From: a virus
Virus record (IMG/VR): IMGVR_UViG_3300044640_001077
Span: 1 to 47,171 of that record
Reading direction: 5' to 3' (one strand)
Length of the DNA stretch: 47,171 nt
Shown here: one piece after another, positions 4,708 through 44,326 of the stretch
How positions within the stretch are numbered: the first letter of the stretch is position 1
How the letters are laid out: every line of letters begins with the position of its first letter
Notes under the pieces: model-generated
The model's database searches: none
Told to the model about the DNA's origin: nothing
The model's input: the letters and a program-made list of their open reading frames with translations, nothing else
Position numbers and translations under genes: made by a program

Positions 4708-5718
4708 ATGAACACAACAAACACAAACATCGCTCGCCCGTCACAGGATGTGACCGCAGCGAACCCGTTTCAATCGGAACGTCATCAACACATCAACCAA
4801 GGAGCTGTTGCTATTGAAGAAAGCAGAGCCATTGCCGAAGCGCAGGGCAAGCTCATTGTAGCTAAACGTTTTCCACGCGATCAGGCTGCTGCTTACGAAC
4901 GCATCATGAAGTCTTGCGCTCGCAAGGGACTTGCCGAAGCAGCCATGTACTCGTTTCCTCGTGGTGGACAGGTCATCACAGGTCCATCAATCCGATTGGC
5001 TGAAGAGCTTGCCCGTGCATGGGGAAACATTGACTACGGCATCCGCGAGCTGTCCCAAAAGGAAGGTGTCTCTGAGATGGAAGCATACTGTTGGGACTTG
5101 GAAACGAACACCTTCAGCTCGCAAAAGTTCACCGTAAAACACGAGCTGCACACAAAGAATGGCGTTAAACGACTAACAGACCCGCGCGACATTTACGAGA
5201 TTACAGCCAACAACGGTGGACGCAGATTGCGCGCTCGTATCTTGGCTATCTTACCGCCTGACATTGTGGACGCTGCGGTTGAGCAATGCTACGCCACACT
5301 TGCGGGCGCAAATACGGAACCGATTGAGGACCGCGTTAAGAAGATGCTCAAAGCGTTTTCTCCCTTTGGCGTAAACAAGGAGCACATCGAACAGAGGCTT
5401 GGAAAGAAGCTCGATTCGGTGCTGTCAGAGGACATCGTTCAGCTCACCACCATATACCAATCGCTTCGTGACAACATGAGCAAGCCGTCAGATTGGTTCG
5501 GCAGCCCCGATGCATCCGAGGCACCCGCACCGATTGCCGAACTCAACACGCAGGTGTCGGAGCAAACAGCCAAGCCAAAGGCTACGCGCAGCAGAAGGTT
5601 AACGCCCGAAAATCAAGAGGCCGAACTCGTTCAAACTGGTGAATCACCAAAGATTGTTGAACAGCTGAAAGCAGATGAACAAGCTAATACACAGCCAACC
5701 GAAGAGGGATTGATGTAA
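4708..5718 (+). CDS. Putative single-strand annealing recombinase (RecT-like)
   Basis: 336 aa, directly downstream of the RecE-like exonuclease. The core (about 40-200) has the pattern of a phage family with AYERIMKSCARKGLAEAA, FPRGGQVITGPSIRLAEE, ARAWGNIDYG and EITANNGGRRLRARILA. I recognise this as a widespread phage protein usually lying next to exonucleases; assignment as a RecT/Red-beta-like annealing protein rests mainly on this context. The C-terminal 80 residues are charged and low in complexity (AKPKATRSRR, QPTEEG), like a flexible tail that could bind SSB. Confidence 0.55.
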   Translation: MNTTNTNIARPSQDVTAANPFQSERHQHINQGAVAIEESRAIAEAQGKLIVAKRFPRDQAAAYERIMKSCARKGLAEAAMYSFPRGGQVITGPSIRLAEELARAWGNIDYGIRELSQKEGVSEMEAYCWDLETNTFSSQKFTVKHELHTKNGVKRLTDPRDIYEITANNGGRRLRARILAILPPDIVDAAVEQCYATLAGANTEPIEDRVKKMLKAFSPFGVNKEHIEQRLGKKLDSVLSEDIVQLTTIYQSLRDNMSKPSDWFGSPDASEAPAPIAELNTQVSEQTAKPKATRSRRLTPENQEAELVQTGESPKIVEQLKADEQANTQPTEEGLM

Positions 5719-5742
5719 TGCCCGTTGGAGATGCCAATGGAT

Positions 5743-5773
5743 GCGCCCACCGACATTTATAAACGGTAGGCGC
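5743..5773 (+). terminator. Possible terminator of the forward operon
   Basis: GCGCC-c-ACCG pairs with CGGT-a-GGCGC around an 11-nt AT-rich loop, followed by ATTCTCT. It sits 25 nt after the annealing-protein stop. The T-run is weak. Confidence 0.45.
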
Positions 5774-5807
5774 ATTCTCTACCCTATCCTCGAGTTATTC
5801 GCCTCAG

Positions 5808-5842
5808 AAATAAAAACAGCCCCACCGTGAGGCGAGGCTGTT
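5808..5842 (-). terminator. Rho-independent terminator for the leftward tRNA/small-gene transcript
   Basis: Read on the minus strand, AACAGCC and GGCTGTT pair across 14 nt and run straight into TTTTTAT. It ends the transcript coming from the tRNA region and the 124-aa gene. Confidence 0.7.
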
Positions 5843-5844
5843 AA

Positions 5845-5864
5845 CCTGTTGCGCTAACAACAGG
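5845..5864. other. Perfect 7-bp hairpin
   Basis: CCTGTTG, loop CGCTAA, CAACAGG. It lies directly next to the terminator on the minus-strand upstream side. A further short hairpin (CACCT...AGGTG) follows at about 5886-5902. The stretch to 5954 is otherwise non-coding. Confidence 0.5.
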
Positions 5865-5954
5865 GTGGCTGCTTATGTCGGAGCACCTAAAGCCGAGGTG
5901 TATGAAGGTGATTTACCTAACCTACTCCTGTTCCGTTACTCATGCGCAACGGGA

Positions 5955-6329
5955 TTATTTTGTGAAGTGCGCAATGCGCTTCATGTTTCCTTCTTTGTCA
6001 ATAACTGTTTGCCAATGGTCAACGTACTTGCCGTGCCATGCTTTGTTGGCGCGTGTCTGTAACTCTTGCCTACGCTCTCTACGGTTCGGTGCGAACACCT
6101 GCTCAAGCTCTCCGTATGCGTTCTTACGTGTTCCGATTTTGGTGCATGATGATGTGTAGCCCATCAATCCATCAACCTCTTCATGAGTGAAAGGATAGTT
6201 CAGCGATTGTTTTGAACGCGGTGGAACGGTGCGTGTTCTGCGTGCTTCGATACGTTCTTTTCGGTTCAGTTCGCGTAGTGCGATTCTGTCTCGCTGGCTA
6301 ATCCCTGCGTAGCGTGATGTTGTTTCCAT
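5955..6329 (-). CDS. Small basic protein of unknown function
   Basis: 124 aa, strongly basic, with clusters such as LNRKERIEARRTRT and NRRERRQELQ. It follows the tRNA genes on the same strand and is ended by the terminator near 5842. No catalytic motif is recognised. The arginine-rich make-up suggests RNA or DNA binding, but this is only an inference. Confidence 0.6.
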   Translation of the reverse strand: METTSRYAGISQRDRIALRELNRKERIEARRTRTVPPRSKQSLNYPFTHEEVDGLMGYTSSCTKIGTRKNAYGELEQVFAPNRRERRQELQTRANKAWHGKYVDHWQTVIDKEGNMKRIAHFTK

Positions 6330-6354
6330 GTGTATGTTGCCGTTTTAAGGTTTG

Positions 6355-6427
6355 TTTCCGAGGCAGGACTCGAACCTGCGTGTTCCTGATTTGCCGTCAG
6401 GAGCGTATCCAACTCCGCCACTCGAAA
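6355..6427 (-). tRNA. tRNA-Cys(GCA)-like with G33
   Basis: 73 nt, no encoded CCA. The acceptor is TTTCGAG / CTCGGAA (one T-G pair). The D arm has 3 pairs, the anticodon stem is CCTGA/TCAGG, and the T arm is GCAGG-TTCGAGT-CCTGC with a canonical loop. The anticodon loop is CGGCAAA, giving anticodon GCA (Cys). Position 33, almost always U, is G, and the discriminator base is A rather than the U expected of tRNA-Cys. A functional charge cannot be assured from sequence. Confidence 0.75.
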
Positions 6428-6429
6428 CT

Positions 6430-6461
6430 CCGAGTGCAGACTATATGCCGTCTGCACTCGG
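6430..6461. other. Perfect 12-bp hairpin just 5' of the tRNA-Cys-like gene
   Basis: CCGAGTGCAGAC pairs perfectly with GTCTGCACTCGG around the 8-nt loop TATATGCC. In transcript order it precedes the tRNA by 2 nt, so it may guide processing of the tRNA 5' end. There is no T-run, so it is not a terminator. Confidence 0.6.
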
Positions 6462-6653
6462 CCGTACGTCTTTCCGTTCTTGTCATCAGTTTTCGTGCCC
6501 GTCACCGTTCTTGAGGAACTAAGTGTCACATGATGCTGAAACATAGTGCGGTGTTGCACCCGCTCCACTCGTTAACGCATGAGCTTACGCTGCGATTGCC
6601 TAAGTATCTACGTGCCGTTTTCCATTACATCACGCGTTGTCGGCAATATTTTT

Positions 6654-6751
6654 GGTATCACAGGGCTGAGCGCGTTCCTGACGGTTTTCCTGCGCAAGTC
6701 TGAGCGTGTTCGCGTCACCTTCTCAGCCCGTCATTTCAGCCCTGTGATACC
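6654..6751 (-). ncRNA. Candidate structured RNA closed by a 16-bp stem
   Basis: Arms at 6654-6669 and 6736-6751 are perfect inverted repeats of 16 bp and enclose 66 nt. The interior can form at least two more stems on the minus strand: CTGAG...CTCAG with an inner GTG/CAC pair, and GCGC...GCGC. It starts 6 nt after the 3' end of the second tRNA, in the same orientation. It has no long ORF. It is not a tRNA; its family is unknown. The 6462-6653 stretch between it and the 12-bp hairpin has only weak hairpins (for example GCGG...CCGC). Confidence 0.5.
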
Positions 6752-6756
6752 TTTCG

Positions 6757-6832
6757 TTCTCGAGAGCGGACTCGAACCGCTGACATGCCCCGTTATACAC
6801 AGAGCCGCTCTAACCAACTGAGCTACTCGAAA
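6757..6832 (-). tRNA. tRNA-Ile(UAU)-like with G33 and a long anticodon stem
   Basis: 76 nt, no encoded CCA. The acceptor is TTTCGAG/CTCGAGA with discriminator A, the D arm is GCTC-AGTTGGTTA-GAGC, and the T arm is AGCGG-TTCGAGT-CCGCT. The anticodon arm pairs CTCTG with CGGGG (plus an extra G-C) around TGTATAA, giving anticodon UAU. As in the neighbouring tRNA, position 33 is G, not U. The alternative fold is a 5-bp stem with a 9-nt loop. Confidence 0.7.
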
Positions 6833-7055
6833 AACCGTTTCGGTCACAGCTTCGGTGGACGTGTCCACAATAGGTATTATTGTCAACCTATTCAGATTGC
6901 CTGCTGCTCCATTCGGAATGTTACTTCTTCATGGTAGTGTTTGATTATCCGTTGAACGGGACCGCTAAATAACAACGCCCCGACCATATACGCAAATTTT
7001 ATTACATATATTTTCGGGACTGTTTCCGATGTACCTGATAGTCAGGCACATATTT
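6833..7055 (-). promoter_or_regulatory. Leader region upstream of the tRNA transcript
   Basis: Non-coding. It holds a copy of the ATACGCAAATTTT motif (6988-7000), a palindrome GTGGACGTGTCCAC at about 6853, a 7-bp hairpin AATAGGT...ACCTATT, and a CCTGA-TAG-TCAGG hairpin near 7031. The motif also lies upstream of three other minus-strand genes, so it probably marks a promoter or operator. Confidence 0.5.
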
Positions 7056-7256
7056 TTATTCCTCCCCGAAGAAACGAGGAGCGAACTTGTCGATTGCCCC
7101 GGCTACGAATAGCAGCACCGTACTCCACTCAGGATGCGATGTCATGAACGAGAAGCCCGCTGTACCCGCAAGCGTGTAGCTAATCACTTCTACGATGTCC
7201 TTCACCCGCTTGGGGGTTGGCTTATGCCATTGGCTGATTCCTATTTTTGTTTTCAT
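7056..7256 (-). CDS. Small membrane protein, holin-like
   Basis: 66 aa. A basic N-terminus precedes two hydrophobic segments (about 22-38 and 44-60, WSTVLLFVAGAIDKF). Size, topology and position in the lysis/fibre end of the late operon fit a class II holin, but holins have no diagnostic motif. The lysozyme gene lies 2.5 kb upstream. Confidence 0.5.
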   Translation of the reverse strand: MKTKIGISQWHKPTPKRVKDIVEVISYTLAGTAGFSFMTSHPEWSTVLLFVAGAIDKFAPRFFGEE

Positions 7257-7534
7257 GCTCCTTTGATTTGTTTCAAAATTTTACCTTTCAGCAAGATCTC
7301 AATTGGCAGCGATACCACTACATCGTGGATGTACACACGCTCTTCTTCGGTAAGTTCTACTTCACCTGTTGTGCGAAGTTCTTCGGCTGCGCGTGCTTCC
7401 AATTCGGGGTTCACGGTGTTTATGCGCTGCTCCAAATGTTCGGCAAGTAAGCCCGATAATGGATAGTTGATTGCGTATGGCTGGATAATTCCATCAACAG
7501 TGATGGTTGGTTGTATGTTTAGGTTGTGTTTCAT
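7253..7534 (-). CDS. Phage protein of unknown function
   Basis: 93 aa. Overlaps the holin-like gene by 4 nt (ATGA), which indicates translational coupling. Acidic and mostly helical (TEEERVYIHDVV), with a hydrophobic C-terminus (IEILLKGKIL). Position suggests a late structural or lysis helper. Not recognised. Confidence 0.6.
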   Translation of the reverse strand: MKHNLNIQPTITVDGIIQPYAINYPLSGLLAEHLEQRINTVNPELEARAAEELRTTGEVELTEEERVYIHDVVVSLPIEILLKGKILKQIKGA

Positions 7535-26986: not shown

Positions 26987-28816
26987 TTATCTGTTCCAAA
27001 ACGTTGACTTCCGTATCTTTGGCTTATCCTCCTGCCCACTCACACCTGCGATAATATCGAAGTGCTCATCCGCAAATCTGTCTATCCCGACCACTGCCGC
27101 TGCTGCTCTCGCATACACCCGGCAATCCAATGGTTCATTCCTCTCAAACTTCTTCACCCACTCGTAAACCTTGAACCCTTTTCTATCTATTTTGAACTGC
27201 AACTCCTCGGCTGTGATGCCTTTGAAGTAGTGCTGCTCGTATTCCGGGAAGTGGCAATAACCCGGTGGGATATCGCCTCCTTCTGCAATCTCTTGTTTCA
27301 ACCATCCGTATAGCTCGGACTTCAACAGCGATACGCCCACTCCGTAAACGCCAACAGATCCAATCTTCTTTCCTTCTCGGGTGATGTGTACCGACTTCGG
27401 TGGGCGAAGAATCATCTGCAACCTGTCGTCACCCTTCACAGGAATAACGCGTGTCGCATCGAACCTTTGACAGAAGTTATAAACGTGAGTGGTGTTGTAT
27501 CCGGTATCAACTGCCATCATGTGCATAGACAACCGAAGTCCGTCCTCGCGCTGCCACGTCTCGCCAACCACCTTCGCCAACTCGTCCCACACATCAACCT
27601 TTGAAGTCTCCCCCATCAGCACGCGATAGTCCAAAGAGTAGGTGCGCTTTCCCTTACACCATCCGACAATCTCCAACTCGAGCCTGTCCTTCTGAACGTC
27701 CACCCCGGCTGTAATAAAACATACGCCCTTTGGTGGAGTATTGAATGTGTAATCCTCGCGCCTGTTGTATAGGTTCATGTACGCAGGTGCTTCTCCCTTC
27801 TCCTTCCAAGTCTCACCCAACACGGTGTTCACAAACGTTTTCAGCTTGTTTACATCGCCCTGCGCTTTACTCCAATCCTCAGCAGCTTGCGCCCAGCTAT
27901 ACCAACCATAAGGCGAGTACAACGAGTTGATGTGATAACCGACCTTGTTCGGGTTTTCGTTGTTCGGCTCCTTCGGTACCCAACACCCCTCTGCAAGCAT
28001 CTCTGTCTTGAATCGCTCCTCAATGAGCTCCTCGCACGATTCACACTGATACCGCGCTGTGTGATACAGACCCGACTGCCAACGCAGTTGCGACCACTTC
28101 AATACCTGCATAGCCCCACAATGAGGACACGGCACATTGAAGTACCGTTGGTCGGTCATCATGAACTCGTTCTCCACAACCGACTTTCCCTCAACCGTTG
28201 GAGTGCTGACTATGAATATCTTCTTCTTCGCAAACGTCCGCGTTCTAGCTCGAGCCAAGTCTATTGGCGAACCCTCTCCGTCAAGATCAATCGGATAACC
28301 GTCTGCCTCATCGAGAAACAAATTCCGCACCGGCATGGAACGAAGCCCAACAGCGGAGTTTGCTCCAGTCATCACCAACACCCCACCGGGGAACGCCTTG
28401 CTTCGTGCCGTGTTGTCGCTGTCCCTAGAGCGAGCAGGCGCAATCTTCTCCCGAAGGCGTGGTGTCGCCTCAATCATAGGGTCGATACGAATCTTTGAGT
28501 TTCGTTTCACCGTGTCGTCCGTTGGCATCACCATCAGCGTGGGTGCCGGGGCAACGTCAATGATGTACCCAACCCAATTATTACCCGCTTCTGTGAACCC
28601 AAGCTGCGCTCCCTTCATCACTACGATTTCCTGAGTGGGATCGTTCGCGCTCAGCCTGTCCATAATCTCCTTTAGGTAAGGCGCACGCGAAGTACGCCAC
28701 AGCCCCGGTTCAGACGAGGCGGTTGGTGAAAGAACCCGGAACCTGTCGGACCACTCGCTTACCGTTAGTCGTGGCTCCGGCCTTAGCCCATCTAAAAACC
28801 CGCTGATAATGTCCAT
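26987..28816 (-). CDS. Terminase large subunit (lambda gpA family)
   Basis: 609 aa. Packaging ATPase: LTVSEWSDRFRVLSP, variant Walker A VVMKGAQLGFTEA, Walker B NLFLDEADGYP, coupling motif FIVSTPTVEG. A zinc-binding pair CPHCG / CESC lies near 235-260. The nuclease part contains ITAGVDVQKDRLELEIVGW (metal-binding D) and AVDTGYNTTHVYNFC. GpA-type terminases usually cut at cos sites, so cohesive ends are expected. One nt after the small subunit. Confidence 0.96.
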   Translation of the reverse strand: MDIISGFLDGLRPEPRLTVSEWSDRFRVLSPTASSEPGLWRTSRAPYLKEIMDRLSANDPTQEIVVMKGAQLGFTEAGNNWVGYIIDVAPAPTLMVMPTDDTVKRNSKIRIDPMIEATPRLREKIAPARSRDSDNTARSKAFPGGVLVMTGANSAVGLRSMPVRNLFLDEADGYPIDLDGEGSPIDLARARTRTFAKKKIFIVSTPTVEGKSVVENEFMMTDQRYFNVPCPHCGAMQVLKWSQLRWQSGLYHTARYQCESCEELIEERFKTEMLAEGCWVPKEPNNENPNKVGYHINSLYSPYGWYSWAQAAEDWSKAQGDVNKLKTFVNTVLGETWKEKGEAPAYMNLYNRREDYTFNTPPKGVCFITAGVDVQKDRLELEIVGWCKGKRTYSLDYRVLMGETSKVDVWDELAKVVGETWQREDGLRLSMHMMAVDTGYNTTHVYNFCQRFDATRVIPVKGDDRLQMILRPPKSVHITREGKKIGSVGVYGVGVSLLKSELYGWLKQEIAEGGDIPPGYCHFPEYEQHYFKGITAEELQFKIDRKGFKVYEWVKKFERNEPLDCRVYARAAAAVVGIDRFADEHFDIIAGVSGQEDKPKIRKSTFWNR

Positions 28817-43891: not shown

Positions 43892-44326
43892 TTAATAGCG
43901 AAAATCCGTAAAATGAATAATTGCCATAGGTTTGTCTGACCTAACTTTGAACCACTCACAAAAATCTTCAAAACTTAATCCGTCATTTTTTGCTACCAAA
44001 TCCCAGTTTACTTTTTTACCTTCAATAGGTGCAAATACAAAATTGTTTGGTTGTTCTAATTTTTGCATACCTATTCCGTGAGTTTTATCATACTTGAAAA
44101 TCTCTTGCTGTTTACTTTGGTATGGTTTGCCTGACCAAATTCTAACTGACAAAATAGCTTCGCCTTTGTTTATTTTTTCAAATCGTTTAGCCCACAAATC
44201 ATAGTTACCTCTGATAGTGTGTATTTTATCATAATGTTTAATTGACAAAGGAAAACCTGTTGGCTTGCCTGATTTTTTGTGAGTTTTTGGAAAGAACTCT
44301 GAAACTATTAAAACGAATGTTGTCAT
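43892..44326 (-). CDS. Protein of unknown function, possible ASCH/PUA-like fold
   Basis: 144 aa. FVLIVSEFFPKTHKKSGKPTGF, IHTIRGNYDLWAKRFEKINKGEAILSVRIWSGKPYQSKQ resembles the ASCH fold that binds RNA or modified nucleotides. The end FCEWFKVRSDKPMAIIHFTDFRY. AT-rich. Confidence 0.55.
   Translation of the reverse strand: MTTFVLIVSEFFPKTHKKSGKPTGFPLSIKHYDKIHTIRGNYDLWAKRFEKINKGEAILSVRIWSGKPYQSKQQEIFKYDKTHGIGMQKLEQPNNFVFAPIEGKKVNWDLVAKNDGLSFEDFCEWFKVRSDKPMAIIHFTDFRY

What the first reader, a model, noticed from the sequence alone, without database searches (positions are those of the whole stretch)
6355..6832. Two phage tRNA genes, both with G instead of U at position 33
Seen: the tRNA-Cys(GCA)-like loop is CGGCAAA and the tRNA-Ile(UAU)-like loop is TGTATAA. 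In both, position 33 is G, where U is almost universal because it forms the U-turn. The same change in two unrelated tRNAs is unlikely by chance. Known: phage tRNAs can carry anticodon-loop changes that avoid host anticodon nucleases. Inference: G33 could be such an escape change, or these RNAs could have a non-decoding role such as decoy. The Cys-type also has discriminator A.
Basis: partly seen in the sequence, partly recalled or inferred. Interest (0 to 1): 0.8.

Follow-up and report, generated by a model that had tools for sequence, protein, structure and literature searches.

The report
Phage tRNA-like genes with altered anticodon loops
A bacterial virus carries two small tRNA-shaped RNA genes whose codon-reading loops break a near-universal rule (one has G where U or, rarely, C is found; the other has an over-long arm), and scattered, unrelated viruses carry the same rare G, so viruses may be repurposing or protecting tRNAs in a way not yet described.

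Summary
Both tRNA-like genes are real (ARAGORN and Rfam). The Cys(GCA)-like gene has G33: its loop CGGCAAA contains no U at all. The Ile(UAU)-like gene differs: its anticodon arm is 19 nt instead of 17, so 'position 33' depends on register; its best fold is a 7-bp stem with a GUAUA pentaloop. In a relative with 80% identical terminase, the syntenic homologue keeps acceptor, D and T arms but has a 35-nt anticodon arm, again closed by a 7-bp stem of different letters. G33 is rare: 0 of 436 tRNAs in an unselected IMG/VR sample (409 U33, 27 C33). Yet it recurs in unrelated phages with Cys, Glu, Asn, Lys and Tyr anticodons, sometimes beside a U33 tRNA of the same amino acid. A haloarchaeal virus tRNA-Asn differs from its U33 counterpart by that base alone. 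Best reading: tRNA-body RNAs with decoding turned down or lost, kept for protection from, or decoying of, tRNA-targeting host factors. The biochemistry is untested. I found no published description of recurrent G33 in phage tRNAs in the library searched. New variant of a known kind; moderate interest.

The parts
6355..6427 (-). tRNA-Cys(GCA)-like gene with G33 (loop CGGCAAA), A73, U1-A72, no encoded CCA
   Evidence: ARAGORN; Rfam RF00005 48.0 bits; cloverleaf
6757..6832 (-). tRNA-Ile(UAU)-like gene with a 19-nt anticodon arm (best fold 7 bp + GUAUA)
   Evidence: ARAGORN; Rfam 43.2 bits; folds; syntenic homologue in G037
6428..6756 (-). 329-nt spacer between the two genes, no Rfam match, strongly structured, with a 16-bp perfect stem next to the Ile-like gene and a 12-bp perfect stem next to the Cys-like gene
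   Evidence: fold: -119.3 kcal/mol, z -5.5 against dinucleotide shuffles; no other Rfam family at E<=1
6977..7021 (-). hairpin upstream of the Ile-like gene, conserved in G037, probably the terminator of the preceding operon
   Evidence: 78% identity of the 88-nt region 6958-7045 to G037 43965-44052; sequences

Best explanation
These are phage-encoded RNAs with an intact tRNA body (acceptor stem, D arm, T arm) in which codon reading has been given up or turned down. Shown: the body is kept by pairing, and the anticodon arm departs from the decoding standard, by G33 in the Cys-like RNA and by a 19-nt arm in the Ile-like RNA (35 nt in its homologue). Inferred: host RNase P/Z and the CCA-adding enzyme mature them like tRNAs, and they then act through the tRNA body, most likely as nuclease-insensitive or decoy tRNAs against host factors that attack tRNAs during infection, rather than as efficient adaptors. 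For the Cys-like RNA a weak decoding role stays possible, because G33 with A37 can in principle form a GNRA-like turn.
For: Syntenic homologue in G037 keeps 23/27 and 27/30 of the body positions but its anticodon arm is 35 nt; the 7-bp stem pairs in both with no position keeping the same pair, and the acceptor pair U3-A70 is C3-G70 there. A further relative, L115, has a tRNA-like RNA with a 14-nt anticodon arm. G33 0/436 in an unselected phage sample but recurrent in unrelated phages and constant where the rest of the tRNA varies. Some phages have a U33 tRNA and a G33 tRNA for the same amino acid, so the G33 copy is not needed merely to supply that amino acid. G33 lowers decoding in Candida tRNA-Ser (PMC4695839).
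Against: Expression, maturation, charging and decoding are all untested. The homologue comparison for the Ile-like gene rests on two sequences. The Cys-like gene has a regular 5-bp stem, 7-nt loop and GCA anticodon and may decode. No host nuclease or other target is identified, and the host is unknown.
Confidence: 0.4

Rival explanations
1. Nuclease-resistant decoders: functional tRNAs whose G33 or altered loop blocks a host anticodon nuclease while they still read codons, so the phage can translate after host tRNAs are cut.
For: Published principle for phage tRNAs (PMC10264068). Hardygib1 tRNA-Asn differs from the HRTV-22 tRNA-Asn only at base 33. G33 occurs in Lys, Glu, Asn and Tyr tRNAs, isotypes that include known nuclease targets (own knowledge).
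Against: The 19-nt and 35-nt arms of the Ile-like gene and its homologue are poor candidates for decoding. The Cys-like gene lacks U73, a main E. coli cysteine identity base (own knowledge). No nuclease identified.
Confidence: 0.27
2. Decaying tRNAs: dispensable phage tRNAs under relaxed selection, in which G33 and anticodon-arm length changes are accumulated damage.
For: Anticodon-arm lengths of 14, 19 and 35 nt in related phages; modest Rfam scores; many relatives have no tRNA at all.
Against: Acceptor and anticodon stems stay paired with changes on both sides; G33 is constant in groups whose other positions vary; random decay should give A33 as well as G33, but the unselected sample had neither.
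Confidence: 0.2
3. Processing punctuation: the tRNA folds serve as RNase P/Z cut sites that release the structured 329-nt spacer RNA.
For: The spacer is far more structured than shuffles (z -5.5). The anticodon arm, which RNase P does not need (own knowledge), is the variable part.
Against: G037 matched only in the tRNA-like and upstream parts, not in the spacer, and has a normal tRNA-Met next door. It does not explain G33 in other phages.
Confidence: 0.07
4. Mistranslating tRNA: a tRNA with a Cys anticodon but another amino-acid identity, whose G33 keeps misreading low, as described for other natural mistranslating tRNAs.
For: G33/A33 is reported in natural mistranslating tRNAs and G33 lowers their decoding (PMC11415595). 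The Cys-like gene has A73 and a 3-bp D stem reminiscent of tRNA-Leu.
Against: No identity elements tested; the discriminator base varies within the G33 Cys-like group.
Confidence: 0.06

Closest known systems
Phage tRNAs with anticodon-loop mutations that evade anticodon nucleases (van den Berg et al. 2023, PMC10264068)
   Same: Phage tRNA genes with changes in the anticodon loop outside the anticodon
   Different: Position 33 is not mentioned in that paper; here no nuclease is known, and the Ile-like gene has a changed arm length
Candida albicans tRNA-Ser(CAG) with G33 (PMC4695839)
   Same: Natural G33 in a tRNA
   Different: Eukaryotic nuclear tRNA involved in codon reassignment
Natural mistranslating tRNAs with G33 or A33 (PMC11415595), such as the bacterial dual-identity tRNA-Pro family with A33
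   Same: Purine at 33 in a natural tRNA
   Different: Those have A33 and A34 and tRNA-Pro bodies; no identity evidence here
Hardygib1 virus tRNA-Asn(GUU), OK649958
   Same: Virus tRNA with G33 (loop CGGUUAA)
   Different: Archaeal virus; otherwise a normal tRNA-Asn; HRTV-5 and HRTV-22 have U33
Viral tRNA-like structures of plant RNA viruses
   Same: tRNA-shaped viral RNA used for something other than decoding
   Different: Those are at genome ends and structurally remote; comparison from own knowledge only

Membership tests
Canonical decoding tRNA | Cloverleaf fold recognised by the tRNA covariance model | tested here: met
   RF00005 48.0 and 43.2 bits, above gathering 29
Canonical decoding tRNA | Pyrimidine (nearly always U) at position 33 | tested here: not met
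   Cys-like G33; background 409 U, 27 C, 0 purine
Canonical decoding tRNA | 5-bp anticodon stem with 7-nt loop | tested here: inconclusive
   Met by the Cys-like gene; not met by the Ile-like gene, whose arm is 19 nt
Canonical decoding tRNA | Aminoacylation and codon reading | not testable with these tools
   Needs biochemistry
tRNA-Cys | GCA anticodon with U73 | tested here: not met
   GCA present but A73; the U73 rule is own knowledge from E. coli
Anticodon-nuclease-evading phage tRNA | Loop change relative to the host tRNA at or near a known nuclease site | not testable with these tools
   Host and nuclease unknown
attP-derived tRNA fragment | Partial tRNA (usually the 3' half) next to an integrase | tested here: not met
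   Both genes have full 5' and 3' halves with paired acceptors; no integrase among the genes scanned, though not every ORF was scanned

The most novel reading that the evidence does not exclude
Phages maintain a class of G33 and arm-altered tRNA-body RNAs that do not decode but work as decoys or sponges for host tRNA-targeting immunity. In this phage both anticodon hairpins can be drawn with GNNNA pentaloops (GUAUA and GGCAA) that resemble protein-binding boxB-type loops.
Probability: 0.15. Interest if true: 0.8.

Novelty: new variant of a known kind. Interest (0 to 1): 0.5.

Why it matters
U33 makes the turn that presents the anticodon. A purine there should impair decoding, so phages that keep G33 copies, sometimes beside a U33 copy for the same amino acid, offer a direct way to ask whether phage tRNAs are adaptors, nuclease-proof spares or decoys. 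That question about phage tRNAs has been open for decades.

Tried and rejected
Rejected: a covariance placement with U33 for the Cys-like gene (the loop has no U); an attP fragment (whole cloverleafs); a sequencing error as a general explanation of G33 (several distinct contigs agree), though not excluded for this record alone. Led nowhere: DNA similarity of the 5500-7500 region in named phages (none); relatives of ORF 5955-6329 (none); the 7539-8447 gene as a handle on relatives (a widespread gene whose carriers have few tRNAs); named-phage BLAST with the tRNAs (mostly generic tRNA matches, but led to Hardygib1). Considered and dropped: reading the anticodon one base upstream (C33, then GNN). 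It turns GCA into GGC (Ala) but needs the A31-U39 pair broken, and the acceptor lacks G3-U70. Codon usage was computed (Cys 9.0 per 1000; AUA 22% of Ile codons) but there is no host for comparison.

Full report
Observation. ARAGORN and Rfam both find two tRNA genes on the minus strand, 6354-6427 (Cys, GCA; RF00005 48.0 bits) and 6756-6832 (Ile, UAU; 43.2 bits). In the Cys-like gene the stem CCUGA/UCAGG closes the loop CGGCAAA: G33, with no U in the loop in any register. Its acceptor is UUUCGAG/CUCGGAA, with A73 and no encoded CCA. The Ile-like gene is not a plain G33 tRNA. Its anticodon arm is 19 nt, GCUCUGUGUAUAACGGGGC. ARAGORN uses a 6-bp stem and loop UGUAUAA (G33, UAU). A 5-bp stem leaves a 9-nt loop in which U is followed by GUA. 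The minimum-energy fold pairs 7 bp and leaves GUAUA. The two genes share an identical 5' acceptor strand UUUCGAG and GGUUCGAGUCC in the T arm, so they may not be unrelated.

How unusual is G33? A scan for a common T-arm sequence, blind to the anticodon loop, brought 80 IMG/VR loci. ARAGORN reads 436 distinct tRNAs in them: U33 409, C33 27, G33 0, A33 0. ARAGORN does report G33 tRNAs elsewhere, so this is not a hard filter, though its scoring may favour U33. In 369 whole genomes of one bacterial phylum the pattern CTGACGNNNAATCAG..GGTTCRA gave no match, while the U33 version gave 8 matches in 29 genomes of the same phylum. The same G33 pattern in viral contigs gave 16 stretches, 15 of them in tRNA-like contexts and 14 called by ARAGORN as G33 tRNAs: Glu(CUC), Asn(AUU), Asn(GUU), Lys(CUU) and Tyr(GUA); L400 has the pattern with UGU (Thr) but ARAGORN did not call it. 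The Cys version GACGGCAAATC..GGTTCRA gave 11 tRNA-like genes in 5 sequence groups besides the window. The carriers share essentially no proteins with the window phage (one weak methylase match). Groups L118/L121/L129/L132 (Cys) and L387/L389/L392/L399/L401 (Glu) vary in D loop, acceptor or T arm but not in the anticodon loop. L124 has a U33 and a G33 tRNA-Cys; L391, L393 and L402 have U33 and G33 tRNA-Lys. The tRNA-Asn of Hardygib1 virus (G33) and of HRTV-22 (U33) differ in that base alone; HRTV-5 is also U33. These G33 cases were found by patterns that fix G33, so they show recurrence, not frequency.

Relatives. The nearest long relatives are G037 (IMG/VR 3300032294_001472, 48.9 kb, terminase 80% identical) and a phage contig in a proteobacterial MAG, JAIXOQ010000026.1 (L115; terminase 65%, primase 45%, helicase 63%). 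G037 has a syntenic homologue of the Ile-like gene behind the same conserved upstream hairpin. Its 5' part (acceptor and D arm) matches 23 of 27 positions and its 3' part 27 of 30, but its anticodon arm is 35 nt. Both arms start with 7 standard pairs, with no position keeping the same pair, and the acceptor pair U3-A70 is C3-G70 in G037. The L115 phage has a tRNA-like RNA with a 14-nt anticodon arm ending in GUUG, a 111-nt Leu-type RNA with an odd middle, and an initiator-like tRNA-Met with a normal loop. G037 also has a normal tRNA-Met. I found no orthologue of the window's Cys-like gene in these phages.

Mechanism. Shown: tRNA bodies are kept by pairing; the anticodon arms depart from the decoding standard. 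Inferred: the RNAs are matured as tRNAs and act through the body. The most economical proposal that covers both genes is that decoding is lost or turned down while the RNA stays attractive, or stays safe, to host factors that attack tRNAs. Escape from anticodon nucleases with retained decoding is the main rival; it fits the Cys-like gene and the one-base Hardygib1 case better than the Ile-like gene. Decay of dispensable tRNAs is the null hypothesis; compensatory change and the specific recurrence of G33 argue against it but do not exclude it. G33 with A37 could form a GNNNA, GNRA-like turn: GNRA loops contain the U-turn, and boxB pentaloops are GNRA-like (PMC12550061). This offers a reason why G rather than A replaces U, but it is structural inference only. 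The A37 seen in the pattern-found cases was imposed by the pattern.

Known and new. Phage tRNAs with nuclease-evading anticodon-loop changes are published (PMC10264068); position 33 is not mentioned there. Natural G33 is known in Candida tRNA-Ser (PMC4695839), and G33/A33 in mistranslating tRNAs (PMC11415595). Searches of the paper library for position 33, G33 or U33 in phage tRNAs found no report; the library is partial. I rate this a new variant of a known kind.

Noticed in passing
window 6428-6756 (-): The spacer between the two tRNA-like genes is strongly structured (z -5.5), with perfect 16-bp and 12-bp stems, and matches no Rfam family; possibly a separate non-coding RNA.
   Followed up: partly
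L115 6263-6373, L265 615-721, L266 555-663, L113 1501-1602: Leu-type tRNA-like RNAs of 102-111 nt with a tRNA-Leu D arm (GGCGGAAUUGGUAGACGC or close) and an oversized, differently folded middle part, in relatives of this phage; ARAGORN misses them.
   Followed up: partly
L267-L346: About 6% (27 of 436) of phage tRNAs in an unselected sample have C33 instead of U33, often several in one phage (L275, L282, L287).
   Followed up: no
L388, L397, L398: G33 tRNAs with anticodon AUU (A34, very rare in bacteria) in three different tRNA bodies.
   Followed up: no
L115 17557-17628: A phage contig carries an initiator-like tRNA-Met (C1-A72 mismatch, three G-C pairs in the anticodon stem).
   Followed up: no
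window 26987-28816 (-): Among named phages the closest terminases are those of Wolbachia phage WO (about 52% identity), although the nearest relatives found are in environmental metagenomes.
   Followed up: no
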